This document shows, one piece after another, positions 1-36,017 of a stretch of DNA of 47,580 nt; position 1 is the first letter of the stretch, and every line of letters begins with the position of its first letter. A program made the translations under genes and the position numbers. The stretch covers positions 1 through 47,580 of the IMG/VR virus record IMGVR_UViG_3300046336_000166, one strand, 5' to 3'. This stretch comes from a virus. A model generated the notes under the pieces. The model worked only from the letters and a program-made list of their open reading frames with translations. It was not told the DNA's origin and searched no databases.

Positions 1-277
1 AACCAGTGATCCTGATGCGATAGATGGTAGTCCAATACTACCTGTGTCTTCAATATTTGTATTGATAATTAGATCAACCAGTGATCCTGATGCGATAGAT
101 GGTAGTCCAATACTACCTGTGTCTTCAATATTTGTATTGATAATTAGATCAACCAGTGATCCTGATGCGATAGATGGTAGTCCAATACTACCTGTGTCTT
201 CAATATTTGTATTGATAATTAGATCAACCAGTGATCCTGATGCGATAGATGGTAGTCCAATACTACCTGTGTCTTCA
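1..277. repeat. 75-bp in-frame tandem repeat (3 full copies plus 52 bp)
   Basis: The unit starting AACCAGTGATCCTGATGCG recurs at 1, 76, 151 and 226 with no visible base difference; the fourth copy stops matching at 277. The period is 75 bp, exactly 25 codons, so the minus-strand frame stays open across all copies and gives a 25-residue protein repeat starting DTGSIGLPSIASGSL. The array continues past the window edge. Perfect nucleotide identity implies recent expansion or homogenisation, or a collapsed or expanded assembly repeat. Confidence 0.95.
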
Positions 278-432
278 GCCAGCCCATAAGGTGGTAGACT
301 TCCAGATATCACTCCAGGTAGCCCTATAGACGCAGTATCACTAATCTCAAATCCATAGAGTGAACTGGTGAAGAATTCACTTACTGTGAGTTCTCGCCTA
401 TCGGCTAAGATTCCATGGAGAGAAGTCTTCAT
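1..432 (-). CDS. repeat-containing fibre-like protein (3' end outside window)
   Basis: The minus-strand frame opens at ATG 432-430, overlapping the TGA of the upstream gene (ATGA), and stays open to the window edge (144 codons seen). Residues 1-53 hold a degenerate first repeat (SIGLPGVISGSL). From residue 54 the protein is made of identical 25-residue units with SIGLPSIASGSLVDLIINTN. Regular short repeats next to a small virion-type gene behind a late promoter suggest a fibre or adhesin-like structural protein. No family is recognised. Repeat number may vary between isolates. The function is inference; the open frame and the repeats are directly visible. Confidence 0.7.
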   Translation of the reverse strand, partial: MKTSLHGILADRRELTVSEFFTSSLYGFEISDTASIGLPGVISGSLPPYGLAEDTGSIGLPSIASGSLVDLIINTNIEDTGSIGLPSIASGSLVDLIINTNIEDTGSIGLPSIASGSLVDLIINTNIEDTGSIGLPSIASGSLV

Positions 433-1097: not shown

Positions 1098-2168
1098 TTA
1101 GCAGTAGCGCTCAACCAATCGAGCCCAATTTGGAACCCCCGAAGCCGCCAGGTTCATCCCGCGTACCAATTTTCTGATATTAACAGCACCTGTCTGTTTC
1201 TCTATCAAGTCGACTACTGCCATTCGCTCTTCGAGTGTGAGAGTACCCTCGATTGGAATGTTGGGAGCAATCTTACGCATGAATGCAAACACCTCAGCCT
1301 TTGTGGGGTCTAGTGTTATGATAAATCCTCGTGTGGCGAGTGCACCATCGGGATCGAGCACGTCAGGTGATAAGTTACTGATCAATATTACACGACCCTC
1401 GAAGTCGAAATATCGTGGAAACTTCTCAGGCTCCATTCCAGAATCAACAGCATCCAGTGCATCACCCATGAGGGCTTCGTCAGCTGGATCGAACAACCAC
1501 GACGCAGCCTTCGCCCAAACTAATTTACGCTTCTTCTTAGTATCCAGTGCAGCTTTCAGTAAGTTGCGACCTTCTTGGGTAGATACGATCGTGTCACAAT
1601 CATCAAGAACCACAATTCCAGTACGATTCATAAAGAGTGTCTTGTATAGACCAGCAGCAGATCCTGATGAAGTGTTCTTAAAATAACCATCGCCGTCTGA
1701 TAAGCCTAGATTTTGAAGAGTTTCCTCAACAGTGTGAGTATTGTGGTGAACAAAACCTGCGGCGTCGCTATACAACATCTTCTCAGATTGCACTTGGATA
1801 TCATAGACATCACTAACAACACCTGTGGAAATTTTAGAAACTACCACGGCGATGTCACCAGATGTCTTGGCTAATAGATCACCAACCTTCATTTCACTTG
1901 CGACGATGACATCATTCCGTGCATTAGTAGCAAACATGTGATGATCTGCACACACTACAGTCTCACCGGTAGAAAATTCAAATTCAATTAATTTGGCTTG
2001 CTTGCGAATCAGACCAATCACAGGAATTAGGCAATTCTCTTGATCGCGAATCAACCAATCGAATTCTCGAGTGTCATATAGTTTGTTTAATTCTAATTCA
2101 TCAATTGATAAATTTTGTTTTACGTGTTCCGCCAATTGAAGGAAGGAACGAATTTCGAGATTGTGCAT
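1098..2168 (-). CDS. split-intein C-fragment fused to C-terminal half of AAA+ ATPase
   Basis: Residues 1-143 are an intein C-fragment. TGETVVCADHHMF (about 67-79) resembles block B, with Cys in place of the usual Thr. MKVGDLL follows, then VYDIQV (about 121-126) as block F, and the end is FVHHN, with penultimate His and terminal Asn. The extein starts at Thr144 (THTVEETL) and carries Walker B GIVVLDDCD and a sensor-1-like VILISNLS. It lacks the beginning of the P-loop, which is encoded at the end of the 4827-5819 gene. Trans-splicing would join GAGGLGK to THTVEETL and restore GAGGLGKT, giving about 529 residues in total. It has its own late promoter. The molecular task of the ATPase is unknown. 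Confidence 0.88.
   Translation of the reverse strand: MHNLEIRSFLQLAEHVKQNLSIDELELNKLYDTREFDWLIRDQENCLIPVIGLIRKQAKLIEFEFSTGETVVCADHHMFATNARNDVIVASEMKVGDLLAKTSGDIAVVVSKISTGVVSDVYDIQVQSEKMLYSDAAGFVHHNTHTVEETLQNLGLSDGDGYFKNTSSGSAAGLYKTLFMNRTGIVVLDDCDTIVSTQEGRNLLKAALDTKKKRKLVWAKAASWLFDPADEALMGDALDAVDSGMEPEKFPRYFDFEGRVILISNLSPDVLDPDGALATRGFIITLDPTKAEVFAFMRKIAPNIPIEGTLTLEERMAVVDLIEKQTGAVNIRKLVRGMNLAASGVPNWARLVERYC
1740..2168 (-). other. intein C-fragment (IntC, 143 aa)
   Basis: This is the coding span of intein residues 1-143. MHNLEIRSFLQLAEHV corresponds to the region after block A in continuous inteins, so the split lies just after the first beta-hairpin, an atypical far-N-terminal site like that of AceL-TerL and VidaL. 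Together with the 14-residue N-fragment the intein is about 157 residues, a normal mini-intein size, with no endonuclease domain inside. Confidence 0.85.
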
Positions 2169-2805: not shown

Positions 2806-3408
2806 ATGTTTTTCGCATTCTTATTCATCGTATTAGGGTACTTGGGATATCGTGGGTACAAATTAGGCTACTTCAGCCCTAAAGTTCAAACCCCCGCCGC
2901 TCCCGAGCCCGTTAAATATTATCCAGGAACACTTGTGGGGTCATTCACGATGCCTTCACACGAAGCTCGCATTGCTGCACGCAACACAAGTCTCGTTAAT
3001 CACGGGCACACTGTGACAGGAGACGACTCAATTGATAATGCTGTGCTTGGCGGAGGTTCACCTGACGGCGGAATTTGGTTGAGTGGACACTATGCATTTG
3101 AAATCGATGCAAATGGGCAGAAGACAGATAAATCTTGGATCACAGTGTTTAGTGATGAACACTTTCCGGTTACGGGTGGCGTGATGCCTGACGGTAAAAT
3201 CGGAATGGCATCACCCGCAGGTGTATCAATCACTGGCCAGATTATCGGTAACACTGTCGTGGGTAAGGTTTGTGAAGCTGGAATGATTGCCAAGGTTGGC
3301 TCCATACCAGGTCTGGAAGGGAATCCTGTAACGAGAGATGGTGAACAGTATCTGGAATATGTTCACGGTGCGATGACGGGGACATTTACACCAAACGGTA
3401 AGCTCTGA
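2806..3408 (+). CDS. membrane-anchored beta-rich protein, paralogue of the preceding gene
   Basis: 200 residues. Residues 1-19 (MFFAFLFIVLGYLGYRGYK) form a membrane anchor, followed by a Pro-rich linker (VQTPAAPEPVKYYPG) and a beta-rich domain with GGIWLSGHYAFEID and VSITGQIIGNTVVGKV, shared in pattern with 2245-2793. A good ribosome site AAAGGA sits 11 bases before the ATG, and a strong two-way terminator follows. The anchor suggests the domain is exposed outside the cytoplasm or at the membrane. Function is unknown; a superinfection or lysis-related role is only a guess. Confidence 0.65.
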   Translation: MFFAFLFIVLGYLGYRGYKLGYFSPKVQTPAAPEPVKYYPGTLVGSFTMPSHEARIAARNTSLVNHGHTVTGDDSIDNAVLGGGSPDGGIWLSGHYAFEIDANGQKTDKSWITVFSDEHFPVTGGVMPDGKIGMASPAGVSITGQIIGNTVVGKVCEAGMIAKVGSIPGLEGNPVTRDGEQYLEYVHGAMTGTFTPNGKL

Positions 3409-3432
3409 TTTAAATAAATCACAGAGTGTTAT

Positions 3433-3461
3433 AAAAAAAGCGCCTGAGGCGCTTTTTTTTT
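3433..3461. terminator. bidirectional intrinsic terminator
   Basis: AGCGCC-tga-GGCGCT forms a perfect 6-bp GC-rich stem with seven A on the left and nine T on the right, so it works in both directions. It separates the convergent gene at 2806-3408 from the endonuclease gene ending at 3464. Confidence 0.92.
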
Positions 3462-3463
3462 GT

Positions 3464-4723
3464 TCACTGGAACTGAGTACTAAAAGCTTTGTGACGGGTT
3501 TGAATTGTATCAACAACACGCTTAATAACCGCCATCGCATCCGCATTAAACTCCGTCTCTGTAATATGACTGATTAACATGTTAGGATACATTTCTAATA
3601 TTTTGTCATCCCTACGCTTTTTATCAGCTGTGTAATATGTGTAATCGTCAGTCCGATGGTAATATTGCCCATCAAACTCAATGATTAATTCCAAATCTGG
3701 AATATAGAAATCAGGCTTACAAAATGTTTCTTGGAGTTCTAGAGTAAATTCGTTATTCTTGATATCTGTATCGTTACCAATTACCCTGGTTGCATAATAT
3801 ATCGGTAATTCCTTGATCGTATCAGGCAGCATTTGGCAAACCCCATCAAACAGCACCTGTGATATCTTACTATAATTTTGTTTCTTAAAGTTTTTGTGCC
3901 ATAGTGCTTGACGTTCCTTGAACCTAATCAACCCGTCGACTTCCCCATACTTTTCGATGCAGATGTCCAGTGAAAAGGTTCGTTGTCTATTAGACAATAA
4001 AACTTCCGCTTGTTCAACATTGCCATTGCACTTGTTGACCCAATATTGTAAGTTTGTGTTGCGTGTACTTTTATCAATCAGTCCTGCCTTCCAAGCCGCT
4101 TTGGCGCCGTCTGCTGCATGTTGTTGAACTTTTTGAACCTCCTTCGTGGCCTGCTCTCGAGAGCAACCTTGCTGTTCCCAATATCCAATAGTTTTAGGAG
4201 AATGTGCTCCCTGATGTGCCGTGACTTGTTCAACTGCCTCTTCGTATGAGTATCCTCGCTTTACCCAATACTCTGGGCGCCTTGCTGTAAATCCATACCG
4301 CTTATCATCAACCAACACACGCGCTTCTTCTATAGAATGTCCTAATCCAATCCAGTGATCTAAATTTAGTTCCAGTTGCTTAATAGCATTGCGAGATTTT
4401 TGTTGCTCAGATATGTAGTGCTTTGCATCATCTTCGCTCCATCCTCGGCGAATCCAGTGTTCTACATTGTTGGGTTTTGCTGTTTTGTTGGGGTTAATTA
4501 CCCCAAACCTCAATGCAAGATCCCCCTTAGTTTGGGATATTGTTGGAGTTGTATCCAAGAACACTTGCACGTTGTGTAGAGTTTCAGGAAACCAGCCCCT
4601 CCATTCGTGTCGATACAAAAGTTCTCGAATGAAACAATATTCTAGTACTTCGTCGGGAGTGGAAAGTTCGATAATAGTGTTGGGTGTGTTTGCTACACGG
4701 GTTACTTTGGTTATTGTTGTCAT
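3464..4723 (-). CDS. free-standing Vsr/DUF559-like homing endonuclease candidate, 419 aa
   Basis: The N-terminal half holds about five modules of the type HW/YW-x-RG-x-S-xEEA (HWIRRGWSEDDA, HWIGLGHSIEEA, YWVKRGYSYEEA, YWEQQGCSREQA, YWVNKCNG), spaced roughly 35-45 residues apart, probably DNA-recognition repeats. The C-terminal domain has FCKPDFYIPDLELIIEFDG followed by QYYHR and KKRRDD, the E-D-x-H-D pattern of Vsr-like (EDxHD) endonucleases. The gene lies between the two halves of the split-intein ATPase, the position of endonucleases in fractured genes, where they are thought to spread the locus. The start at 4723 is chosen because the ATG at 4771 lies upstream of the late promoter; a hairpin ends 3 bases before the chosen ATG. 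Confidence 0.82.
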   Translation of the reverse strand: MTTITKVTRVANTPNTIIELSTPDEVLEYCFIRELLYRHEWRGWFPETLHNVQVFLDTTPTISQTKGDLALRFGVINPNKTAKPNNVEHWIRRGWSEDDAKHYISEQQKSRNAIKQLELNLDHWIGLGHSIEEARVLVDDKRYGFTARRPEYWVKRGYSYEEAVEQVTAHQGAHSPKTIGYWEQQGCSREQATKEVQKVQQHAADGAKAAWKAGLIDKSTRNTNLQYWVNKCNGNVEQAEVLLSNRQRTFSLDICIEKYGEVDGLIRFKERQALWHKNFKKQNYSKISQVLFDGVCQMLPDTIKELPIYYATRVIGNDTDIKNNEFTLELQETFCKPDFYIPDLELIIEFDGQYYHRTDDYTYYTADKKRRDDKILEMYPNMLISHITETEFNADAMAVIKRVVDTIQTRHKAFSTQFQ

Positions 4724-4726
4724 ATA

Positions 4727-4757
4727 AAATATAGGGTTGATTGCTAACCCTATATTT
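4727..4757 (-). promoter_or_regulatory. 12-bp perfect hairpin over the endonuclease start region
   Basis: AAATATAGGGTT (4727-4738) and AACCCTATATTT (4746-4757) are perfect complements with a 7-base loop. In minus-strand RNA the stem ends 3 bases before the endonuclease AUG, inside the ribosome footprint. This matches the logic of T4 I-TevI and lysozyme mRNAs, where the hairpin blocks translation of read-through RNA. Confidence 0.7.
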
Positions 4758-4760
4758 ATA
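4753..4760 (-). promoter_or_regulatory. late promoter TATAAATA for the endonuclease gene
   Basis: A perfect T4-type late promoter on the minus strand overlaps the first arm of the hairpin at 4727-4757. The predicted start near 4747 leaves almost the whole first arm out of the late transcript, so late RNA cannot form the hairpin. Confidence 0.7.
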
Positions 4761-4826
4761 CAACATTCCATAGTTGTGTGCTACTCGGACCTGGTGGATC
4801 AGGAAGGGGTAGTGATATTTGAGGAG

Positions 4827-5819
4827 TTACTCGCCAAATACCCCAGCCAATTCCGAATTAGGGTCCAAACATTTTCCCAACCCCCCAGCGCCCAATACAA
4901 TCGCGAAGTTACTTGCGCCCTTTGCTACCGCCGTGATGATGGTTTTCATATCATCTAATTGCTCTTCATAAGGAATACGACTCTGTGTGGCCTCAGGGTA
5001 AGCACGTGCTGCACGATCTTCTGAATCAGTACTCGTTGATTCATCACCACCACTCCGAACCTCCAAAGCTGCTCTTCCTTTCTTGGGTGCCGAATCTAGA
5101 ACACTTTGTACAATTTCATCGCGATCAAAGTCGGCACTAGAGCCGATTAGTGTAAATCTCTGCCTACCAGCACCATCTGTCTTAATATCAAACGCATCTT
5201 TGTACTTCTGAGTAATCTCACCGAAAATTCGTTCTTGGTTGCGGCCCATCTTGGAAATGTTGAACTTAGACACAGGACCAGCACTCAGTGCATCAATAAC
5301 GTCACTATACGCATCCTCAGTTAATATTACAGGGGACTTCGATAGTGTATTCACATAGTAAACACTTTCTGATTCGCGGAGTACTTTTACATCTAGTGCG
5401 ATTTGAGCACGCGACTCTTCAGTCGACAATTCAACCACACCAACTCTTGGTGATACGATCACAGCACTGAGTGTAGGGAGAATGGTTGCCAGTGATAGTG
5501 TCCCGAGTGGTGCTCCATCAATAGCTGTGATCTGAAAGTTGGGGTGCTTGGTAGAGCCATCCCAAACAGATATGGATTCGAGTACAGACGCTGAGTCACT
5601 GCGAGTCCAGTTGAACCGAACACTCTTACCTGATTCGGTAAAATATCTCAAGCCAATTCCGGTGCCGGCGGCGCCTTTGTAGTGCTCCATCTCAGGGAGT
5701 GCATATAGGGTGCCTGTTGATTTTTCAAGATATTGCTTGATAAGTTGAATAGAACGCGCAAAATCTGCAGTTCGGATGCCTTCAGATAAGTATTTCAGGA
5801 AGTTCATAAATGTTCTCAT
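4827..5819 (-). CDS. N-terminal half of AAA+ ATPase fused to a split-intein N-fragment
   Basis: 330 residues. Residues 1-13 (MRTFMNFLKYLSE, then G) resemble a T4 capsid-targeting sequence cleaved after L-x-E. The middle is mixed alpha/beta and of unknown family, followed by a Ser/Asp/Glu-rich linker near 255-280. The end reads FAIVLGAGGLGK, an interrupted Walker A, then the 14-residue intein start CLDPNSELAGVFGE and a stop. The missing Thr and the remaining ATPase domain follow the intein end in the gene at 1098-2168. The late promoter CATAAATA and a small hairpin overlap the start codon. The spliced product would be about 529 residues. If the tag works, the ATPase or its N-part would enter the head. 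Confidence 0.88.
   Translation of the reverse strand: MRTFMNFLKYLSEGIRTADFARSIQLIKQYLEKSTGTLYALPEMEHYKGAAGTGIGLRYFTESGKSVRFNWTRSDSASVLESISVWDGSTKHPNFQITAIDGAPLGTLSLATILPTLSAVIVSPRVGVVELSTEESRAQIALDVKVLRESESVYYVNTLSKSPVILTEDAYSDVIDALSAGPVSKFNISKMGRNQERIFGEITQKYKDAFDIKTDGAGRQRFTLIGSSADFDRDEIVQSVLDSAPKKGRAALEVRSGGDESTSTDSEDRAARAYPEATQSRIPYEEQLDDMKTIITAVAKGASNFAIVLGAGGLGKCLDPNSELAGVFGE
4830..4871 (-). other. intein N-fragment (IntN, only 14 aa)
   Basis: It encodes CLDPNSELAGVFGE: catalytic Cys1 and a block A-like CLDPNSEL, directly after the P-loop Lys. The stop TAA follows at 4827-4829. At 14 residues it is shorter than the roughly 16- and 25-residue natural N-fragments of VidaL and AceL-TerL as far as I recall them. 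Confidence 0.85.
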
Positions 5820-5840
5820 AGTGTAGATGCACTATTTATG
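5818..5840 (-). promoter_or_regulatory. late promoter CATAAATA (5833-5840) with start-codon hairpin
   Basis: CATAAATA on the minus strand serves the ATPase N-half. Arms ATAGTG (5818-5823) and CACTAT (5830-5835) can pair. The downstream arm includes the first two bases of the AUG and the upstream arm overlaps the promoter, so only read-through RNA could fold. Confidence 0.5.
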
Positions 5841-5858
5841 TGGTGTATGTGTGATGTG

Positions 5859-5887
5859 TTGACCTTTCGTGTTTATTTGAGTACAAT
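5859..5887 (+). promoter_or_regulatory. sigma70-type promoter
   Basis: TTGACC (5859-5864), 17-bp spacer, TACAAT (5882-5887). It starts the plus-strand cluster at 5924 and diverges from the late promoter of the ATPase N-half. Confidence 0.75.
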
Positions 5888-5923
5888 TGGATCTATACCA
5901 CAACTTATTTGAGAACCTACAAA

Positions 5924-6205
5924 ATGCTATCTCTGACTCGTTATGTGACAGATTACGTAAACTCCATCCGAACAAAGGCTGAGGTTGCAGATATTTTGAT
6001 CTCATATGACGCCTATAGGGAACATCCACACGCTGATGCTGAGTTGGTGTTATATCATGCATCCAAACTTGTGAACCTCGCTAATTTAAATATTAACCAT
6101 GCAGATATTCATCCTGGTAGCGACATGGCTATCCTAATCGACGCTCTTGGGTATGCGTGCGCGCGGAACTTAGCCGGCCGATTCATTGATTATTGTATGG
6201 ACTAA
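5924..6205 (+). CDS. hypothetical protein, 93 aa
   Basis: Mostly helical by composition (ADAELVLYHASKLVNLANLN in the middle), no recognisable family or membrane segment. ATG 5924 is preferred over the in-frame TTG at 5909 because GAGA lies about 10 bases upstream of it. First gene after the sigma70-type promoter at 5859, so probably early. The small genes that follow are closely spaced and likely on the same transcript. Confidence 0.6.
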   Translation: MLSLTRYVTDYVNSIRTKAEVADILISYDAYREHPHADAELVLYHASKLVNLANLNINHADIHPGSDMAILIDALGYACARNLAGRFIDYCMD

Positions 6206-6213
6206 ACGCACAC

Positions 6214-6378
6214 ATGACAGAACAAGACCCACAGAATTCACTTTTGGAACCTCGCCTCATGACGGCAGTTCAAAAACTTAGTGATCGAATCTCTACACTC
6301 GAATCCCAGCGTAGAATGCTCGAAGAGCTAATGAAGTCCGTTTCATCACCCTCTAAAACCACACCGGAGACCCCTTAA
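6214..6378 (+). CDS. small coiled-coil protein, 54 aa
   Basis: Residues 15-42 (TAVQKLSDRISTLESQRRML and on) have heptad-like spacing, suggesting a short dimeric coiled coil; the tail is Ser/Thr/Pro-rich. It starts at ATG 6214, eight bases after the preceding stop, and ends one base before the next ATG. No family is recognised. It may be a partner of the adjoining membrane proteins, which is inference from position only. Confidence 0.55.
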   Translation: MTEQDPQNSLLEPRLMTAVQKLSDRISTLESQRRMLEELMKSVSSPSKTTPETP

Positions 6379-6379
6379 T

Positions 6380-6652
6380 ATGGAAACTCAGTTATATCTC
6401 ACGTCTATTGCAATTTGCTTCGTTGTGATGGTAATTGCGATCAAATTGCACTTCAGAGCTGTCACAATCGGGACACTATTAGTCACAATTGTCACCTCGC
6501 TCATTCCCGGGGTCAACATGATAATTCCTGTGATGATTGTATTTGGTACCAGTGTGTGGGTTATCCTCGTCTCCATCGATAATATATTCAATCGATCATC
6601 GAGAGACCGTGATTCCCACAAGAGAAATTTCTTGGACACTAAATTATTTTAA
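6380..6652 (+). CDS. membrane protein with LIPGVN motif, 90 aa
   Basis: Two to three hydrophobic segments: about residues 4-22, 30-42 and 45-66 (IIPVMIVFGTSVWVILVSI), followed by a charged tail (RSSRDRDSHKR). The motif SLIPGVNMIIPV recurs as MLIPGVNSVLAV in the next gene, so the pair are likely paralogues with a shared membrane hairpin. The function is not known; phage membrane proteins of this size include superinfection-exclusion factors and lysis regulators. Confidence 0.6.
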   Translation: METQLYLTSIAICFVVMVIAIKLHFRAVTIGTLLVTIVTSLIPGVNMIIPVMIVFGTSVWVILVSIDNIFNRSSRDRDSHKRNFLDTKLF

Positions 6653-6664
6653 CTGGAGAATTAT

Positions 6665-6967
6665 ATGGCAAGTGGTTTATTGTATGTAGTCAGCATGTTA
6701 CTCTGTGGGGCTCTCGGATTCATTATGTTCGAAGCCTACAATAAAGAACGATTACTGAGTGCGAGAGTCGATCGGTTTGGTAACCGACTCCAAAGTACTC
6801 AAGTTGATGGAGTGGAAGTTCTCGTGGAAGAAGAAAATGTTCCGATGTTTGGTAATTGGCTCGACTGGCACCTACCCACTCTCATAATCTTGATGTTGAT
6901 TCCAGGTGTGAACTCGGTATTGGCGGTAATTGCAGTCGGGTTGCTTGGACTTTCTGTAGTACTCTGA
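6665..6967 (+). CDS. membrane protein with LIPGVN motif, 100 aa
   Basis: An N-terminal membrane segment (GLLYVVSMLLCGALGFIMF) is followed by a charged 45-residue loop and a C-terminal hydrophobic hairpin (LIILMLIPGVN, then VLAVIAVGLLGLSVVL). It shares LIPGVN with the preceding gene. Ribosome site TGGAGA lies 9 bases before the ATG. Probably inserted in the inner membrane with the charged loop on one side. Function unknown. Confidence 0.6.
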   Translation: MASGLLYVVSMLLCGALGFIMFEAYNKERLLSARVDRFGNRLQSTQVDGVEVLVEEENVPMFGNWLDWHLPTLIILMLIPGVNSVLAVIAVGLLGLSVVL

Positions 6968-6989
6968 ATAATTTTATCCAGAACCTCTG

Positions 6990-7017
6990 TTGCCTTAATC
7001 TGGAATTAGGGTATAAT
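6990..7017 (+). promoter_or_regulatory. sigma70-type promoter for RNA ligase 1
   Basis: TTGCCT (6990-6995), 16-bp spacer ending TTAGGG, TATAAT (7012-7017). The TTAGGGTATAATA core is the same as in the early promoter family at 20953-40617, but the downstream ACCCTAAGAG half is absent. Confidence 0.75.
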
Positions 7018-7059
7018 AAACTCATCTGAACAATCCCCGAATCAAGGAAATATTTAAAC

Positions 7060-8202
7060 ATGTCAACTAAGTTCAATGCTAATACATTGTATACAGACCT
7101 TATGGCTCTATGCAGTGAAGGTGATACTTTTTACTTCAAAGATTTTGAATATCTGGGGAGAGTCCTTCGAATTTTCAACTACCGCCTCGCGTCGTGGACA
7201 GAATTCCAGAAGCCAGGTGCACTTGACTGTCGTGGCACGACATATGACATCACAGGCAACCCTCAGTTGATTTCTCTCCCACCTCAAAAATTCTTTAATT
7301 TTGCCGAAGGTGGGGTGGACCACGATGAGTGTGTTATTTCGAGTGCAATGGAAAAACTAGATGGATCACTAATTAGCACAATGTTGGTCAACGGCAATCT
7401 ACATGTTAAGTCTAAGGGTTCGGTGTATTCTGATCAGTCAGGCGACGCAGCATATTACATCTCATACCACGAAGAACTGCGGATCGCGCTAAAAATGCTG
7501 GAGTTATCTGGTTACACAGTCAGTCTGGAGTACACCGCACCACACAATCGAATCGTTGTGGGATATCAAATCCCACAATTGCGAATTTTGGGCATCCGGA
7601 GTTTGGCAACAGGGGAGTATATTCTCCCAGCACAAATAGCACAAGTTACTGGTGTTACTGTCCCGAGTGAGTACCTAGTCTCTCACGGGTTTCCAGAAAT
7701 GATCCCATCAGAATTCAATGAGTATTGCAAGCAATTGCAAGAAGGTGAAGGTTGTGTAGTCGAGATGCACAACCCTACGACAGGGGTACGGTACCTAGTG
7801 AAGTGTAAGGCTGACAAATACGTTCTGTTGCATAAGCAGAAGGATAATGTCAACAGCCCCCGCGCACTATTTGAACTAGCCGCGGTCCAGGGGACGGACG
7901 ATATTCGCAGTATCTTCGGTGATGACAAGTACGTCCAAGATCGAATCACAGCAATGGAGAATCACGTGTTCCCAATTCTTAATTCGATTGAGTCTCAAGT
8001 CAGTAAATTTTATGCTGAAAACAAGCTACTAGAGCGCAAGGACTATGCAATCAAGGCACAGTGCGAACATCCTGACCTGATGCAATTGATGATGAATACC
8101 TACTTGGGACGGATTGTGGACTATCCACAATTTTTAATCAAGCGGTATTCTGAATATAAACCAGCATGGGCAACTGAGACTATTGAGGATTCAGTCGAAT
8201 AA
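7060..8202 (+). CDS. rnlA: T4-type RNA ligase 1
   Basis: 380 residues, close to T4 Rnl1 (374). Motif I MEKLDGS places the adenylated lysine at residue 99, the same number as in T4. Upstream are LDCRGTTYD and KFFNFAE; downstream SLEYTAPHNRIVV (motif IIIa region), GEGCVVE (motif IV) and VKCKADKY (motif V). The enzyme seals 5'-phosphate and 3'-OH RNA ends with ATP; in T4 it repairs tRNA cut by host anticodon nuclease together with a polynucleotide kinase, which I do not see here. A sigma70-type promoter lies 42 bp upstream and a strong inverted repeat follows the gene. Confidence 0.95.
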   Translation: MSTKFNANTLYTDLMALCSEGDTFYFKDFEYLGRVLRIFNYRLASWTEFQKPGALDCRGTTYDITGNPQLISLPPQKFFNFAEGGVDHDECVISSAMEKLDGSLISTMLVNGNLHVKSKGSVYSDQSGDAAYYISYHEELRIALKMLELSGYTVSLEYTAPHNRIVVGYQIPQLRILGIRSLATGEYILPAQIAQVTGVTVPSEYLVSHGFPEMIPSEFNEYCKQLQEGEGCVVEMHNPTTGVRYLVKCKADKYVLLHKQKDNVNSPRALFELAAVQGTDDIRSIFGDDKYVQDRITAMENHVFPILNSIESQVSKFYAENKLLERKDYAIKAQCEHPDLMQLMMNTYLGRIVDYPQFLIKRYSEYKPAWATETIEDSVE

Positions 8203-8207
8203 TAAGT

Positions 8208-8250
8208 TATTGGGGGTAGTGAGGCTAAATACTGCACACTACCCCCAATA
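8208..8250 (+). promoter_or_regulatory. 14-bp inverted repeat enclosing late promoter CTAAATA
   Basis: TATTGGGGGTAGTG (8208-8221) and CACTACCCCCAATA (8237-8250) pair perfectly. The 15-base loop holds CTAAATA (8225-8231). With late-promoter spacing the start falls at about 8237, the first base of the second arm. Read-through RNA from the ligase gene would fold into a strong hairpin (possible terminator without a T-run); late RNA for the 8268 gene would not. Confidence 0.7.
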
Positions 8251-8267
8251 CTCGACGCACACCTACG

Positions 8268-8750
8268 ATGATTGAATTATCCACAGATCAGTGTAGATAT
8301 ATCAGAAATAATTGCAAGCAAGCGCTGGATCGGTTAACAACCGTCGGTCTAAAGAGCGGTAACTCCACCAGCTTGTTTAGTATCTGCAAAGTTCGACACT
8401 CCTCATTTGACTTGGGGAGACACCACCTTATTCAGGACCAACTCAGCAATTATCCGAAAGCATCTGTCAGGTGTCTGACGACAAATGTCGACTCGACCTG
8501 CTATGCGTTCCCAGTAGGAGAATTTAGCTGGCGCCCAGTCGTATTCAAGCAGGATTCTGATGTTGATATACTATCACTCGAGCTGTTGGAATATACGCTC
8601 CGAGACAGATACAGTTCGACAGGAGAGTTGACTGATGCGATTATGGAAGGCACAGAACTCGAAATATACGGAATGCGCAAGGTGGTCCTGGTATCTCAAT
8701 CAGTTGCCCCCTCTTATAGGGAACTACTTCAATTGATTTACACAACATGA
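8268..8750 (+). CDS. hypothetical late protein, 160 aa
   Basis: No recognised domain. There are Cys residues at about 9, 16, 41 and 69 without a clear metal-site spacing, and a region LLEYTLRDRYSSTGELTDAI that looks helical. It is expressed from the late promoter in the 8208-8250 repeat and overlaps the next gene by ATGA, so it is likely co-translated with that virion-type protein. A structural or assembly role is inferred from position. Confidence 0.6.
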   Translation: MIELSTDQCRYIRNNCKQALDRLTTVGLKSGNSTSLFSICKVRHSSFDLGRHHLIQDQLSNYPKASVRCLTTNVDSTCYAFPVGEFSWRPVVFKQDSDVDILSLELLEYTLRDRYSSTGELTDAIMEGTELEIYGMRKVVLVSQSVAPSYRELLQLIYTT

Positions 8751-16393: not shown

Positions 16394-16996
16394 ATGTCAA
16401 CACCATCAATCATCGCAATAACCGCAGCTCAATCAGCTGGTAAGACTACCCTAATTACTCGACTAAGTGAGTGCCATGGGCACTATGTGGTCGCAAGAAA
16501 ATCATCACGATCGATACAAACGGATTGGGGCGTCACTCTGGATCAGATTAATTCCGATCCAGAACTGACAATAAAATTCCAGAATGAGATCCTCACCAGA
16601 AAACTCGCTGACGATACATCCACATATCTTGAAGTTCAACGTAGACACACACCACTACAACATCCAATCATATTCACGGAACGTAGTCCAGTGGATTTAT
16701 TTGTATACGCGCTGATGGCTCTTGGTGGAGTTCAGAGCCGCTCTGACTGGTTGGATAATTACTATCACCAGTGTGTATCCGCACTAGCAGGATATAACAA
16801 GGTCGTGTTCATCGAAGGTGGGCACTTTGCACCTCAAGTCGAGGCGCAACGAGCATCTGTAAACAAACACTACACAAGCCTTGTTGATGACACAATGCGC
16901 AAATACTTTGATGTGATGGTTCCTACCTCTCGACAGATCATCGTTAATTGCCTCGATATCAATGACCGGTGTGACCAAGTTCTGTCTCAACTATAA
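16394..16996 (+). CDS. P-loop kinase/ATPase (AAA_28/NadR-like), 200 aa
   Basis: Walker A-like AAQSAGKTTL at about residues 11-20 (first Gly replaced by Ala). ERSPVDLFVYAL (about 96-107) resembles the DR..D lid region of nucleoside and nicotinamide-riboside kinases, and KVVFIEGGHF is a following strand. ATG 16394 is chosen over the upstream TTG because MSTPSIIAITAAQ begins directly with the P-loop strand. Likely substrate: a nucleoside or nucleotide, by family analogy only. The tmRNA gene follows. Confidence 0.7.
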   Translation: MSTPSIIAITAAQSAGKTTLITRLSECHGHYVVARKSSRSIQTDWGVTLDQINSDPELTIKFQNEILTRKLADDTSTYLEVQRRHTPLQHPIIFTERSPVDLFVYALMALGGVQSRSDWLDNYYHQCVSALAGYNKVVFIEGGHFAPQVEAQRASVNKHYTSLVDDTMRKYFDVMVPTSRQIIVNCLDINDRCDQVLSQL

Positions 16997-17011
16997 TAAG
17001 TAAAAGAAATG

Positions 17012-17335
17012 ATTGTGATGAGCTTCCGAAGGGTGCGGTACTCTAATCCGCCTCGGGCTAGAAACTCTGGAAACCTAAATTGGTAAAACTGGCAACAATC
17101 GGGTGCAAATCCCGACGCCTCCACCAAAAACATTATGTCCAGTGCGAGTATAGTGTTTTTGATGGGGGCGATCTAGAATCGACTGACAGAGAATAGAATT
17201 TAATTACAATCCGACACGCACGAACGTCGTTAAATCTGGCAAACAAATAATAACTCACAACGATGAATTATTTGCGTTAGTCGCCTAAACACCGACAACA
17301 CGCTGAGGCTGGTTACCTTATCACCCAACAACTAG
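17012..17335 (+). ncRNA. ssrA: circularly permuted two-piece tmRNA
   Basis: The acceptor piece comes first. The T-arm TCGGG-TGCAAAT-CCCGA (17099-17115), the 3' acceptor strand CGCCTCC (17116-17122), discriminator A and encoded CCA (17124-17126) are clear. After a 37-nt spacer the coding piece begins GGGGGCG (17164-17170), which pairs with CGCCTCC over 7 bp with one G-U, then carries AGAATCGAC like other tmRNAs. A reading frame from about 17238 gives GKQIITHNDELFALVA and TAA at 17286, ending like ssrA degrons; the resume codon is uncertain. A terminator follows. Both outer ends are approximate. Permuted ssrA is known in alphaproteobacteria, some cyanobacteria and some betaproteobacteria. Confidence 0.88.
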
Positions 17336-17364
17336 AAAGAGGCCTCACAAGGGCCTCTTTTTTT
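17336..17364 (+). terminator. intrinsic terminator of the tmRNA gene
   Basis: AAAGAGGCC-tcacaag-GGCCTCTTT with a run of seven T (17358-17364). Perfect 9-bp stem directly after the coding piece of the tmRNA. Confidence 0.93.
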
Positions 17365-17406
17365 GCCTATACATCTTAGAGTCAAAATACCCCAGTTTTT
17401 TGCATA

Positions 17407-17413
17407 CTAAATA
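17407..17413 (+). promoter_or_regulatory. late promoter CTAAATA
   Basis: TACTAAATAGTG shares the AAATAGTG extension with the minus-strand late promoters at 2191 and 5833. It lies 65 bp before the 17479 start. Confidence 0.55.
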
Positions 17414-17478
17414 GTGACGTTACCAGCGCTCTTCTGCATAATACCAGGGAGTTTTTACTAGAAAGTTACTATAAAATC

Positions 17479-17871
17479 ATGTTTCAATACAAAAATCAAA
17501 CCCCTATCGAGATTCGTCCAAGCAAATATCCACACATCGGATGGATTGACCCTACCGGAACTGGTGTATGGGAAGAGGTCGCAATCTTGAATGTCGATGC
17601 AAATGGAAATGTTCACTTTGTTCCGTTGAGCAGCTTGGATTCGATCGACAAACGCCGCCTTGTTGATATCATCTCTGGCCGCCAAGCAACATTGTTTCCA
17701 TTGTACGAGTTGATGGCTCAGAAGACACTGGGCAATGGTGTGAATTCATTGGAGTACTACCACCAGCTTGCAAAAATCTTGACTCCTAATGGGCAGATTT
17801 TACAACCTCGCCTCGGACAGATTGGCGGCACTGCTGCCCAATTGCAAAGCTACTCACCACCAGCGCGATAA
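17479..17871 (+). CDS. hypothetical late protein, 130 aa
   Basis: Basic-neutral protein with Pro/Gly motifs (YPHIGWIDPTGTGVWEEV) and a Gln-rich end (QIGGTAAQLQSYSPPAR). A late promoter upstream and a perfect terminator downstream mark it as a single late gene, so a virion component is likely. The family is not recognised. Confidence 0.6.
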   Translation: MFQYKNQTPIEIRPSKYPHIGWIDPTGTGVWEEVAILNVDANGNVHFVPLSSLDSIDKRRLVDIISGRQATLFPLYELMAQKTLGNGVNSLEYYHQLAKILTPNGQILQPRLGQIGGTAAQLQSYSPPAR

Positions 17872-17895
17872 GAATTTGCAATTCTAATACAAGAT

Positions 17896-17925
17896 AAAAT
17901 AGGGCACCTAATCTGCCCTATTTTT
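17896..17925 (+). terminator. intrinsic terminator
   Basis: AAAATAGGGC-acctaatct-GCCCTATTTTT: a 9-10 bp stem with a T-run, 25 bp after the stop at 17871. Confidence 0.92.
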
Positions 17926-18002
17926 ATTGCAATGGTACTTGTGAGTTGACTACAGTCTCGCAAATGAATTAATGTATGTGGTATGATATAAGGAAATAAA
18001 GT

Positions 18003-18098
18003 ATGTTTAATGTTTATGGTATTATTATGTTGTTAGTTATTGTAGCAGTCATAGCTGGCATTGCAAGTATTGTGACCAGTTTTGATAAAACGGACTAG
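18003..18098 (+). CDS. 31-aa single-span membrane peptide
   Basis: MFNVYGIIMLLVIVAVIAGI and a few more residues form one membrane segment, ending with SFDKTD. An AAGGAAATAAAGT ribosome site precedes the ATG by a normal distance. No neighbour overlaps it. Small single-span phage peptides often modulate host membrane enzymes, but nothing here specifies the target. Confidence 0.6.
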   Translation: MFNVYGIIMLLVIVAVIAGIASIVTSFDKTD

Positions 18099-18147
18099 TA
18101 CGATACGAAAAATATCCACTAGATCTGTCCATCAGTTGAGTACTATT

Positions 18148-18179
18148 CAATACCGTGATACTATCAAGAAACGGTATTG
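18148..18179. repeat. 9-bp inverted repeat in intergenic region
   Basis: CAATACCGT (18148-18156) and ACGGTATTG (18171-18179) with a 14-base loop and no T-run. It lies in the 189-bp gap between the membrane peptide and the late gene at 18288; it could be an operator or an RNA stem. Nothing else is seen in that gap apart from the late promoter. Confidence 0.4.
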
Positions 18180-18250
18180 CTTGAGTTACGCACAAACCCT
18201 AATACCACTGTGTTCATATTAGACGGCACATCTACCATCCTCGCGGATCT

Positions 18251-18258
18251 GATAAATA
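18251..18258 (+). promoter_or_regulatory. late promoter GATAAATA
   Basis: GATAAATAATCC lies 29 bp before the ATG at 18288 and matches the late motif in seven of eight bases. Confidence 0.55.
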
Positions 18259-18287
18259 ATCCACTGAAATAGACGAAACTCCCACAA

Positions 18288-19412
18288 ATGACCCACGAAA
18301 TTATACAAAAAGATCCGACAATTGATGTCAAATTAGGCATGATTGGTGAAGTTGCCATCACGGACGACCTCGGAAACACAATTCTCGAGAAAACGAATGC
18401 TATTCATCCACAAAATATGAGTAGAATTATTGCTCGAGCACTTGCAAATGAACCTAATGCTGGAATTTACAGAATTGGATTTGGTAGTGGTGGAACATTC
18501 GTCGACGCAACTGGTACAGTATCATTCCGAACTGTAAATGATGGCGCACTGCCCGATCCCTCTAACTGGGAATCCAGACTCCACTACGAAGTGTATTCTG
18601 AAGTCGTCGAGGAATCAAATCCTTTACTAGGAACTGGTCCAGGAGCAGTACCAGGTGGTGACGCTGCAATTGCACCAACGGGAGTCCACAGCATTGAATT
18701 GCCAACGCTGAAATCTCAAGTCATAGTGACCTGCGTACTCAATAGGTTTGAGCCTGTCGGACAAGTTCAGAGTTCACTATCCCCAACCTCCGATCGTACA
18801 GATTTTGTATTTGATGAAATTGGTTTGTTCTCTGCTGGTTTGCCTAGAATTGCAACACAGGGGTACCAAGACGTTTTGGTTGGGACAAAGGCATTTGATT
18901 CGCTGACTGGATTGGTGCCTAATACAGTGTACATATTTGACATCACTGTCGATGGAATAACAAAGAATATCTCTCTCACAACCCCAACCGCTGGTTCAGG
19001 AGTTGGTGGGGCAATTACATATGAGGATCTGAACACGCTTTTGAATTCAGCACTGGCTACTGCGACTGCTGGCTGCAATTCTCAAGTAAGTGAACCAGGT
19101 GTAGTGACTTACGGTGCACTGCGGTTCGTATCAATCACCGCCGGAAGCACTTCAACAGTCTCTATTGTTATCCCACCTCTACCATACCCAACAAACTGGT
19201 TATTCTCGAATCTGACAGGATTTACCAATATTGCTAACGCGTTGCCAGGACAGGCTCAAGGTATTGCCAATAGCCCATCTAACCCGAGTAGTGAACGTGA
19301 GCGGTTATTGTCTCACATCATTTTTCACCCACTGCTAAAGAGTATGGATCGAGTGTGGACAATCACATACAAGATTACAGTCACTGTCGGGCGGACAAAC
19401 ACTGTTCCTTAA
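18288..19412 (+). CDS. virion structural protein, 374 aa
   Basis: The body is beta-rich with many Gly, Thr, Ser, Val and Pro residues. IYRIGFGSGGTFVDATGTVS and the ending LKSMDRVWTITYKITVTVGR are the style of aquatic-myophage structural proteins. MSRIIARALAN near residue 43-53 precedes a repeated strand pattern. A late promoter lies upstream and a 32-bp palindrome downstream. Probably a tail or baseplate component; the exact part cannot be named. Confidence 0.72.
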   Translation: MTHEIIQKDPTIDVKLGMIGEVAITDDLGNTILEKTNAIHPQNMSRIIARALANEPNAGIYRIGFGSGGTFVDATGTVSFRTVNDGALPDPSNWESRLHYEVYSEVVEESNPLLGTGPGAVPGGDAAIAPTGVHSIELPTLKSQVIVTCVLNRFEPVGQVQSSLSPTSDRTDFVFDEIGLFSAGLPRIATQGYQDVLVGTKAFDSLTGLVPNTVYIFDITVDGITKNISLTTPTAGSGVGGAITYEDLNTLLNSALATATAGCNSQVSEPGVVTYGALRFVSITAGSTSTVSIVIPPLPYPTNWLFSNLTGFTNIANALPGQAQGIANSPSNPSSERERLLSHIIFHPLLKSMDRVWTITYKITVTVGRTNTVP

Positions 19413-23609: not shown

Positions 23610-23869
23610 ATGTTAGTGGTTTCGAATTGACAGTGAAATCAGCAGTATATGAGTATATGGACACAGCGAGTGATCAAGTCTACACGTTCATAGTTACCCC
23701 CACAGACGTTACGGTGCTTCGGACCGATCCAACACCAGATGGTCAACCACTGCTATTGCAGGGGTATGACATCGCCACCAGCACGTTTATTCACATCACC
23801 GAGTTGACAAGTTATCATCACTTTGCTGATCTAGAATCAGCTGTAGCTGTTATACCAAACGCAAATTAA
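23606..23869 (+). CDS. early hypothetical protein, 87 aa
   Basis: Beta-rich small protein (ELTVKSAVYEYMDTASDQVY, YTFIVTPTDVTVLRTDPTPD). Last gene of the operon from promoter module 1; promoter module 2 starts four bases after its stop. No family is recognised. Confidence 0.6.
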   Translation: MNVSGFELTVKSAVYEYMDTASDQVYTFIVTPTDVTVLRTDPTPDGQPLLLQGYDIATSTFIHITELTSYHHFADLESAVAVIPNAN

Positions 23870-23873
23870 CCTG

Positions 23874-23917
23874 TTGACTTTGCTTAAGTTTAGGGGATAA
23901 TAGACCCTAAGAGTAAG
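23874..23917 (+). promoter_or_regulatory. early promoter module 2
   Basis: TTGACT (23874-23879), 16-bp spacer ending TTTAGGG, GATAAT (23896-23901), then AGACCCTAAGAGTAAG. The G-run and ACCCTAA form the dyad around the -10 box. Confidence 0.88.
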
Positions 23918-23941
23918 CAATTAACGAAATGGAAATTCAAA

Positions 23942-24376
23942 ATGACCACTAAACCAATTTCAAAAGCTAAACAAACTAAGATCGAAGAAATTATTCGCCT
24001 TGAGCAAGAGCAGATTATTAAAGAAAACCTGTTCATTTCAACATACACTGAGAAGTTGTTCAAACTTGCGTTTGACTTTGAAATAAATGTCGTACCAACA
24101 CACGGAGTAAATTCTGTGAAAATTTTACCAGATGGGTTTGTATTTGATACAGATGCGAATGTGTTCACTAACTACTCTAAAATCACGCTTCCTCATTCCG
24201 TTATTGGTCATAATTTACGAAATTTAGAGGATGATTTTTCTACACTTCAAAATCAAATTGATGACCTTGTGGAAAGGCGCACCAGGGAACAAGAGCGACT
24301 AGCTAGGATTTCTGCTGCAAAGGATAAGGCTCGTTCGCTCATGACACCAGAAGAATTAAAGTTGTTGGGTTTGTAA
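23942..24376 (+). CDS. early helical protein, 144 aa
   Basis: A Lys/Glu-rich N-terminal helix (KAKQTKIEEIIRLEQEQIIK), a central beta section with VVPTHGVNSVKILPDGFVFD, and a C-terminal coiled coil (LQNQIDDLVERRTREQERLA). It is alone between promoter modules 2 and 3. Unknown function. Confidence 0.62.
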   Translation: MTTKPISKAKQTKIEEIIRLEQEQIIKENLFISTYTEKLFKLAFDFEINVVPTHGVNSVKILPDGFVFDTDANVFTNYSKITLPHSVIGHNLRNLEDDFSTLQNQIDDLVERRTREQERLARISAAKDKARSLMTPEELKLLGL

Positions 24377-24384
24377 AATAAGTG

Positions 24385-24425
24385 TTGACTCTACTCAAAA
24401 TTAGGGTATAATAGACCCTAAGAGC
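24385..24425 (+). promoter_or_regulatory. early promoter module 3
   Basis: TTGACT (24385-24390), 16-bp spacer, TATAAT (24407-24412). The dyad is perfect here: TTAGGGT, seven bases, ACCCTAA. GAGC follows. Confidence 0.9.
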
Positions 24426-24448
24426 GAAACAACATAAGGAATTTAAAA

Positions 24449-25255: not shown

Positions 25256-25478
25256 AACTAAACTAGTAAACTTTGTTATTGTCAAATACAAACACGCACA
25301 CCTACCATACCCAACTTTCTACAATGTGTATCCGACGGGTTCTGTTAATCAACAGATTACTGAAGGTGTTGCAAGTATCTACGATACAGACAGTAATAAA
25401 AAATTGCTCAGCGAGCTTCGTACTGCAGCAAATACAACATTTGCGGCTCAAACCATTCGAACAATTGAAGAAATTTGA
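25245..25478 (+). CDS. early hypothetical protein, 77 aa
   Basis: MVLETKLVNFVIVKYKHAHL and YNVYPTGSVNQQITEGVASI suggest a beta-rich start and a helical end (LLSELRTAANTTFAAQTIRT). Ends nine bases before promoter module 4. No family known. Confidence 0.58.
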   Translation: MVLETKLVNFVIVKYKHAHLPYPTFYNVYPTGSVNQQITEGVASIYDTDSNKKLLSELRTAANTTFAAQTIRTIEEI

Positions 25479-25487
25479 AATAAAGTG

Positions 25488-25528
25488 TTGACTTGATGTG
25501 AAATTAGGGTATAATAGACCCTAAGAGC
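25488..25528 (+). promoter_or_regulatory. early promoter module 4
   Basis: TTGACT (25488-25493), 16-bp spacer, TATAAT (25510-25515), with the perfect dyad TTAGGGT/ACCCTAA around the -10 box and GAGCAAG after it. Confidence 0.9.
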
Positions 25529-25552
25529 AAGTTAAACAAAGGAAATACATGA

Positions 25553-35492: not shown

Positions 35493-35978
35493 ATGCCAAG
35501 TAAAATTGCAGCACAAAAAGCTCGCCTGAGAGCCGTCACAGCCGAGCTTGAACAAATCAATCGCGAGTTAAATGCGCTGCGGGGCAACCAAACCATCAAG
35601 TGCATTTGCGGTAAGTCTCACAAAATTGCAGAGATGGATTTAATTATTCCTCAAAAGTGGCAGAGTAATCGGGGATATGAAGACGGATATAGTTATGATG
35701 GTGACTTACATGTACTATGTCCACATGAAGCCACACTAGCCAATCGATTATTCTTCAAAACTCGATACGACATCACTTACTCACTCAGAAGTGATCCTAG
35801 ATTCAACGCAGGCGCGCAATTTAAACAGTTATACACAAATTTATTCCGGTCAGTCTCTCGCCCCGATGAATGTGATGTGACATTCACCCAGTGGGGCAAC
35901 AACACATACGTTGACGATCACCATAAAAAATTCGAAATCGATGTTAACTTGTTGACCTTACTCCGATTTGGGGTATAA
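35493..35978 (+). CDS. early protein with coiled coil and Cys-His knuckle, 161 aa
   Basis: N-terminal coiled coil (KARLRAVTAELEQINRELNA), then CICGKSHKIAEMDL, a possible half zinc site with a later LCPHEA. The last 10 codons overlap promoter module 6, so that promoter is inside the gene. No family recognised. Confidence 0.6.
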   Translation: MPSKIAAQKARLRAVTAELEQINRELNALRGNQTIKCICGKSHKIAEMDLIIPQKWQSNRGYEDGYSYDGDLHVLCPHEATLANRLFFKTRYDITYSLRSDPRFNAGAQFKQLYTNLFRSVSRPDECDVTFTQWGNNTYVDDHHKKFEIDVNLLTLLRFGV

Positions 35979-35994
35979 TAGACCCTAAGAGCAA
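35952..35994 (+). promoter_or_regulatory. early promoter module 6, inside the end of a gene
   Basis: TTGACC (35952-35957), 16-bp spacer ending TTTGGGG, TATAAT (35974-35979), then AGACCCTAAGAGCAAG. The dyad is GGGGT/ACCCT. The gene stop at 35978 falls in the -10 box. Confidence 0.88.
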
Positions 35995-36017
35995 GTGTAA
36001 ACTACAGGAAATTCAAA

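What the first reader, a model, noticed from the sequence alone, without database searches (positions are those of the whole stretch)
3464..4723. Vsr/EDxHD-type free-standing homing endonuclease with about five YWxxRGxSxEEA modules
Located between the split-intein halves on the same strand. The tandem modules with spacing near 40 residues look like a DNA-reading array, and the C-terminal domain has PDFYIPDLELIIEFDG...YYH. A modular reader plus nuclease could target the uninterrupted ATPase P-loop site and move the whole split locus.
Basis: partly seen in the sequence, partly recalled or inferred. Interest (0 to 1): 0.65.

Follow-up and report, generated by a model that had tools for sequence, protein, structure and literature searches.

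The report
Swappable nuclease inside a split gene
A phage gene for an ATPase is broken in two by a protein-splicing element, and the DNA-cutting enzyme gene in the gap is a known type of selfish gene; comparison with almost identical phages shows that this enzyme, together with a tiny piece of the splicing element, has been replaced as a unit while everything around it stayed the same.

Summary
Window 4723..3464 (-) encodes a 419-aa protein with five YW..RG.S.EEA modules (starts at aa 85, 119, 148, 177, 223) and a C-terminal domain predicted to fold like the I-Bth0305I (EDxHD), AbaSI and Vsr nucleases. It lies between two split-intein halves of a phage ATPase broken exactly at Walker-A K|T, and intein-less alleles exist in the same clade. 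This is a 'fractured gene' with a free-standing Vsr-like homing endonuclease, a known kind (Dassa 2009; Aeromonas phage Aes123 polB).

What is new lies in the comparison. A phage otherwise 99.3-99.6% identical over 18 kb carries a different nuclease (43% aa) and a different N-intein (13 against 14 aa) here, while the 143-aa C-intein is 100% and two cargo genes 99.5-100% identical. SNPs pile up on both sides of the exchanged block, and all 24 in the N-half gene are synonymous. A third relative has another nuclease in the opposite orientation. Cleavage, DNA reading by the modules and trans-splicing are untested.

The parts
4827..5819 (-). N-terminal half of a phage AAA-type ATPase, ending GAGGLGK followed by the N-intein
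   Evidence: spliced extein 65% identical over 529 aa to uninterrupted L072 ATPase
4830..4871 (-). N-intein, 14 aa (CLDPNSELAGVFGE), inserted after Walker-A Lys
   Evidence: replaced by CQIGTTELLGKFE in L004
4718..4765 (-). RNA hairpin that base-pairs the nuclease start codon
   Evidence: -19.6 kcal/mol, z -6.5, 0 of 200 shuffles as stable
4753..4760 (-). TATAAATA late-promoter-like element inside the 5' arm of the hairpin
   Evidence: one of three exact matches in the window, all on the - strand 20-60 nt before - strand starts (the count alone is not above chance)
3464..4723 (-). nuclease gene, 419 aa
4400..4471 (-). module 1 (aa 85-108, NNVEHWIRRGWSEDDAKHYISEQQ)
4298..4369 (-). module 2 (aa 119-142, LNLDHWIGLGHSIEEARVLVDDKR)
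4211..4282 (-). module 3 (aa 148-171, RRPEYWVKRGYSYEEAVEQVTAHQ)
4124..4195 (-). module 4 (aa 177-200, KTIGYWEQQGCSREQATKEVQKVQ)
3986..4057 (-). module 5, divergent (aa 223-246, TNLQYWVNKCNGNVEQAEVLLSNR)
3488..3877 (-). Vsr-like / PD-(D/E)XK catalytic domain (aa 283-412)
3495..4870 (.). segment exchanged between window and L004 (N-intein + nuclease); SNP-rich flanks 3282-3454 and 4875-8370
3433..3460 (.). intrinsic terminator-like hairpin between nuclease and cargo (A-run, gcgcctcaggcgc, T-run on either strand)
   Evidence: read directly
2806..3408 (+). cargo gene P0005, 200 aa, N-terminal hydrophobic stretch, no known family
   Evidence: 69% homologue in L030
2245..2793 (+). cargo gene P0004, 182 aa, weak paralogue of P0005, no known family
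1098..2168 (-). C-intein (143 aa, 1740-2168, ending FVHHN) + C-terminal half of the ATPase starting THTVEE (from 1739)
   Evidence: PF14890 sub-threshold E 9e-4; phrog_1250 E 4e-20

Best explanation
This is a fractured gene. A T4-like phage ATPase is encoded in two pieces that an atypically split intein (14-aa N part, 143-aa C part) would rejoin by trans-splicing, restoring the Walker-A P-loop GAGGLGK-T. The gene in the gap is a free-standing homing endonuclease made of a five-module helical array and a Vsr-like nuclease domain. Inferred mechanism: the array binds conserved DNA at or near the P-loop coding sequence, the nuclease domain cuts alleles that lack this version, and recombination copies the nuclease with its linked N-intein and flanking exon DNA into the cut genome. 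The split intein hides the damage to the ATPase. Expression is predicted to be held back in read-through mRNA by a hairpin over the start codon and released by a late promoter inside the hairpin, as for I-TevI of T4. Shown here: anatomy, module repeat, predicted fold, intein-less alleles in the same clade, and exchange of nuclease plus N-intein with SNP clusters on both sides. Inferred: DNA reading, cutting, homing direction, trans-splicing, and hairpin control.
For: Insertion exactly between K and T of Walker A, and spliced exteins collinear with uninterrupted homologues. In one clade L006 carries the element and L073 (85% aa) does not, with collinear flanks. Catalytic domain matches I-Bth0305I 3r3p Z 9.6 (97/97), AbaSI 9.3, Vsr 7.3, and aligns by profile with canonical EDxHD-like phage nucleases (hhalign 97.5%). 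Exchange: window and L004 contigs are 99.26% and 99.65% identical left and right, broken only by the N-intein + nuclease block. Twelve of 13 right-hand SNPs lie within 213 nt; on the left 76 SNPs lie in the first 3.5 kb and 1 in the next 8.5 kb; 24 synonymous and 0 nonsynonymous in the N-half gene. Nuclease identities are 38-43% for every pair although the host N-exteins are 59-100% identical. Hairpin z -6.5 pairing the start codon, with TATAAATA in its 5' arm, is the arrangement described for I-TevI, SegB and MobE (PMC2988022). The same reader modules occur in nucleases between split-intein halves of gp46-like and UvsX genes.
Against: No cleavage or splicing data. The full-length model is weak (mean pLDDT 67, pTM 0.34) and Foldseek alone gave no hit below E 0.2. 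No sequence family passes a curated cut-off for the window protein. The catalytic motif deviates: the first E is Q, and the motif is GQYYH where the three relatives have EK(H/Y)HW. The observed exchange left the C-intein and cargo untouched, so it was not homing into an empty site. The window allele is seen in this one record only.
Confidence: 0.72

Rival explanations
1. The nuclease gene is a passenger that no longer cuts; the exchange between window and L004 was ordinary homologous recombination between co-infecting T4-like phages, and the gap merely tolerates foreign genes.
For: Catalytic motif is atypical; other SNP patches exist away from any recognised nuclease (16.9-18.3 kb); cargo without known role sits in the same gap.
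Against: Four different nucleases at one site all keep open reading frames, the D..E.D..H landmarks and the module array; the densest SNPs abut the block on both sides; the window allele carries a dedicated expression hairpin.
Confidence: 0.15
2. The window nuclease allele is an assembly chimera of co-occurring strains rather than one genome.
For: The window junction was found in no other viral contig; L004-type is identical in L004 and L005 and matches in L003, from separate assemblies; the right junction lies next to 34 identical bases.
Against: ORFs stay in frame across both junctions; SNPs cluster outside the junctions and fade with distance, which a simple chimera does not produce; the N-intein still fits the intein pattern C....[ST].L.G; other relatives (L006, L030) also carry unrelated nucleases at the same site.
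Confidence: 0.08
3. The module array binds something other than DNA (protein partner or RNA), with targeting coming from the nuclease domain.
For: Foldseek and VIA-align found no DNA-reading fold for the array; best hits were short RuvA fragments with Z 3 or less. Aes123's split-polB nuclease has no such modules.
Against: Same array is fused to unrelated nuclease folds (Vsr-like and GIY-YIG-like), all in gene-breaking loci, and is better conserved than the catalytic domain among nucleases at the same target (45-50% against 26-34% to the window).
Confidence: 0.15

Closest known systems
Fractured genes with split inteins and Vsr-like (EDxHD) homing endonucleases (Dassa et al. 2009, doi 10.1093/nar/gkp095; paper not held, content from recall and from citations)
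   Same: conserved enzyme gene broken by a split intein with a free-standing Vsr-like endonuclease gene in between, in phages
   Different: host gene here is the phrog_1250 / T4 36.7-kDa nrdC-region ATPase; N-intein 13-14 aa; two cargo genes; module array; direct evidence of nuclease + N-intein exchange
Aeromonas phage Aes123 split polB with putative VSR endonuclease (JN377899)
   Same: annotated as gp43B1 (N-intein) - VSR endonuclease - gp43B2 (C-intein); its intein is the subject of a trans-splicing study (PMC11923092, abstract)
   Different: target gene, no YW modules in the nuclease, canonical IIEYNGDFYH motif
I-Bth0305I, prototype of the EDxHD homing endonuclease family (PDB 3r3p; PMC3943268)
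   Same: Vsr-like catalytic domain at the C-terminus of an elongated multidomain protein; predicted fold match Z 9.6
   Different: intron-borne; the first E of the motif is Q here
I-TevI / MobE / SegB late-promoter + hairpin control (PMC2988022)
   Same: late promoter inside a hairpin that sequesters the translation start of the nuclease
   Different: no clear Shine-Dalgarno in the stem here; the start codon itself is paired; late-start position inferred
SegH and Hef replacing mobC and mobE in T4-related phages (Sandegren 2005, cited)
   Same: one homing endonuclease gene replacing another at the same genomic site
   Different: here the replacement also swaps half of a split intein
HEG-islands (PMC10448857)
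   Same: homing nuclease with linked cargo genes
   Different: single nuclease, cargo of unknown function inside a fractured gene

Membership tests
Fractured gene (split intein + free-standing endonuclease) | host gene split into two ORFs by intein halves at a conserved site | tested here: met
   GAGGLGK|C...FVHHN|THTVEE; uninterrupted homologues collinear
Fractured gene (split intein + free-standing endonuclease) | free-standing endonuclease ORF between the halves | tested here: met
   also in L004, L006, L030
Fractured gene (split intein + free-standing endonuclease) | halves trans-splice to an active protein | not testable with these tools
   intein nucleophile C1, block B-like GETVVCADHH and terminal HHN|T present by reading; no assay
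EDxHD (Vsr-like) homing endonuclease | Vsr-like catalytic fold | tested here: met
   3r3p Z 9.6 rmsd 3.0 97/97; 1cw0 Z 7.3; predicted model only, supported by profile match to EDxHD-like phage nucleases
EDxHD (Vsr-like) homing endonuclease | E, D, H, D catalytic residues | tested here: inconclusive
   D338, H in GQYYH and D in DKKRRDDKI have counterparts; the helix Glu of canonical members aligns with Gln (SQ) in all four; alignment in this stretch is weak
EDxHD (Vsr-like) homing endonuclease | site-specific double-strand cleavage of the uninterrupted allele | not testable with these tools
   needs protein and DNA
Vsr mismatch endonuclease (TIGR00632) | curated model score | tested here: not met
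   16.4 bits against cut-off 97.85; it resembles the fold, it is not a Vsr repair enzyme
DUF559 / MTES_1575 / PvuRts1I-like N (Pfam) | curated gathering score | tested here: not met
   only sub-threshold hits (E 0.06 for the window domain, down to 3e-4 for homologues)
NUMOD DNA-binding modules | match to Pfam models (which include NUMODs) | tested here: inconclusive
   no hit at E 1; a BFVD neighbour is annotated 'Nuclease associated modular domain 3', but the fold comparison is dominated by the nuclease domain

The most novel reading that the evidence does not exclude
Nucleases compete for one fractured gene. An incoming nuclease can attack an allele that already has an intein and a resident nuclease, because its target lies in P-loop exon DNA that the insertion does not destroy. 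Winning replaces only the nuclease, the 13-14-aa N-intein and a synonymously recoded stretch of exon (6 of 24 bases next to the site), which makes the new allele immune, while the C-intein accepts the foreign N-intein and the cargo stays. Split inteins whose N part is a disposable peptide would then be an adaptation to nuclease turnover.
Probability: 0.25. Interest if true: 0.72.

Novelty: new variant of a known kind. Interest (0 to 1): 0.5.

Why it matters
It gives a natural experiment on how fractured genes evolve: near-identical phages that differ in the nuclease and N-intein of one locus, with the tract edges readable. It makes testable whether one C-intein accepts different short N-inteins. 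The predicted 13- and 14-aa N-inteins would be below the 15-aa natural record quoted in PMC13014065. It also points to a module family, absent from Pfam, that is shared by two unrelated nuclease folds in gene-breaking loci.

Tried and rejected
Upstream start at 4771 rejected: homologues start at 4723 and the promoter-like element lies inside the extension. I-TevI-style operator (copy of the homing site upstream of the nuclease): local similarity no better than shuffles (50 of 500 and 112 of 500). Same hairpin in L004, L006 or L030: not found, so it belongs to the window allele. TATAAATA count in the window: 3 against 2.35 expected, not enriched; only the positions are suggestive. Polarity of the exchange from outgroup bases: equivocal over the N-half, leaning to L004 as the older state near the site (13 against 3 site matches in the last 27 nt, summed over four relatives). 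Known fold for the module array: best Z 3.0, no conclusion. Cargo families: none in Pfam, PHROGs or NCBIfam and no match in phage records. Bacterial genome relatives of the nuclease: none confirmed. Dassa 2009 and Taylor 2011 are not held, so their details are recalled. PDB sequence hits to PrsA and MARK3 were judged chance or composition.

Full report
OBSERVATION. The ORF at 3464-4771 (-) is open, and the start at 4723 is preferred. The repeat is real: using module 3 as probe, four further modules rank above every one of 2000 shuffles at their ranks, at aa 85, 119, 148, 177 and 223. AF2 on the array alone (six sequences, pLDDT 82, pTM 0.49) shows each module as a short helix, a turn and a longer helix. 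The best structural neighbours were short fragments at Z 3 or less, so the fold of the array is unassigned.

NUCLEASE DOMAIN. Sequence models score below cut-off for the window protein. Profile searches lean to AbaSI/PvuRts1I. The predicted domain (aa 283-412) aligns with 3hrl (Z 9.8), the I-Bth0305I catalytic domain 3r3p (Z 9.6, 97 of 97 residues), AbaSI (9.3), PvuRts1I (9.1) and Vsr (7.3). Profile against profile it matches a set of phage nucleases with the canonical IIE[YF]NGDF[WY]H motif (97.5%). The window domain differs from its three close homologues in the motif (EFDGQYYH against EFDEK[HY]HW) and is the least conserved part (26-34% against 45-50% in the array).

CONTEXT. The N-half ends GAGGLGK-CLDPNSELAGVFGE-stop and the C-half begins with a 143-aa C-intein ending FVHHN-THTVEE. 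Trans-splicing would restore the Walker-A motif. Twenty-two loci carry this ATPase uninterrupted at the same K|T; two of them, L072 and L073, are in the same clade (65% aa to the window, 85% aa between L073 and intein-bearing L006). The ATPase belongs to phrog_1250 and to the T4 'uncharacterized 36.7 kDa protein in nrdC-mobD intergenic region' group. Two cargo genes of unknown family lie in the gap on the other strand; they are weak paralogues. One of them has a 69% homologue in L030; L006 has none.

EXCHANGE. L003, L004 and L005 come from other assemblies and are nearly identical phages. Between the window and the L004 contig 18 kb align at 99.26% and 99.65%, broken only by 3495-4870, where the N-intein (13 instead of 14 aa) and the nuclease (43% aa) differ. 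The C-intein is 100% identical and the cargo 99.5-100%. SNPs cluster at both edges: 12 of 13 right-hand SNPs lie within 213 nt, and on the left 76 lie in 3.5 kb followed by 1 in 8.5 kb. The last 24 nt of exon differ at 6 positions (P 4e-6 against the flank rate), and all 24 differences in the N-half gene are synonymous. This is the pattern expected of transfer with co-conversion of flanking exon, as described for T4 introns and free-standing endonucleases (PMC2988022). In L030 the N-half is 82% identical and the cargo 69%, but the nuclease is another one (38%) and points the other way. All nuclease pairs are 38-43% identical whatever the relatedness of the phages. The nuclease therefore turns over at a fixed site.

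CONSEQUENCE FOR MECHANISM. Because the C-intein and cargo stayed, this event was not insertion into an empty site. Either the incoming nuclease cuts an intein-bearing allele (target in exon DNA), or recombination between two intein-bearing phages did it without a cut. The sequence cannot decide. L004's N-intein resembles L030's (CQIGTTELLGKFE, CQLGTTNLIGSWGICGV), and its P-loop codons agree better with relatives, so the window allele is more likely the newcomer (moderate).

EXPRESSION. The nuclease start codon lies in a strong hairpin (z -6.5) whose 5' arm contains TATAAATA. A transcript starting from that promoter would lack most of the 5' arm. The same layout is documented for I-TevI, SegB and Aeh1 MobE (PMC2988022). 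It was brought in with the window allele, since L004, L006 and L030 lack it. The late start site is inferred.

FAMILY VIEW. Distant relatives with the same modules occur between split-intein halves of gp46-like genes (L033, L034; Vsr/EDxHD-like domain) and of UvsX (L032, L035, L036, L038, L039, L040), where the C-terminal domain is GIY-YIG-like (MUG113, E 0.007-0.025, sub-threshold). Profile comparison links the arrays (98.2%). Module number varies: five in the four phrog_1250 loci, about three in gp46 and UvsX loci, one in free-standing Cr30, none in Aes123.

VERDICT. It works like, and most probably is, a Vsr-like free-standing homing endonuclease of the fractured-gene kind. Fold membership is met on a prediction, the catalytic signature is inconclusive, and activity is untested. 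The nuclease plus N-intein exchange and the shared module array are what a specialist would want to follow.

Noticed in passing
L030 806-2110 (+) and 2136-3128 (-): Relative in which the gap nuclease is inverted and converges on the N-half gene; contig ends before the C-half.
   Followed up: partly
L040 5661-9182: UvsX appears to be in three pieces joined by two split inteins: the P-loop one with a broken module/GIY-YIG-like nuclease (two ORFs), and a second one with an HNH-like gene on the opposite strand between its halves.
   Followed up: no
L033 1-3285 and L034 5670-8972: gp46-like (SbcC-type) ATPase split at its P-loop by an intein with a module + EDxHD-like nuclease between the halves.
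   Followed up: partly
window 23864-23930, 24375-24441, 25478-25544, 35942-36008 (+): Four copies of a 67-nt repeat, GTTGAC..TTAGGGTATAATAGACCCTAAGAG, looking like strong sigma70-type promoters with the -10 inside an inverted repeat.
   Followed up: no
window 16870-18370: Second SNP cluster (23 SNPs in 1.5 kb) against the otherwise identical L004 contig; no nuclease looked for there.
   Followed up: no
window 1-300: 75-bp tandem repeats encoding repeated VSSIFVLIIRSTSDPDAIDGSPILP on one strand; the reverse-strand frame encodes a repeat in a probable virion protein.
   Followed up: no
IMGVR_UViG_3300046096_000628 116273-116612 (G002): A second, apparently frame-broken intein-like match in the phage of L006.
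   Followed up: no
L075 2590-3612 (Caulobacter phage Cr30): Free-standing relative with one module and a canonical IIEFNGDFWH nuclease domain between terminase small and large subunit genes, annotated hypothetical.
   Followed up: partly
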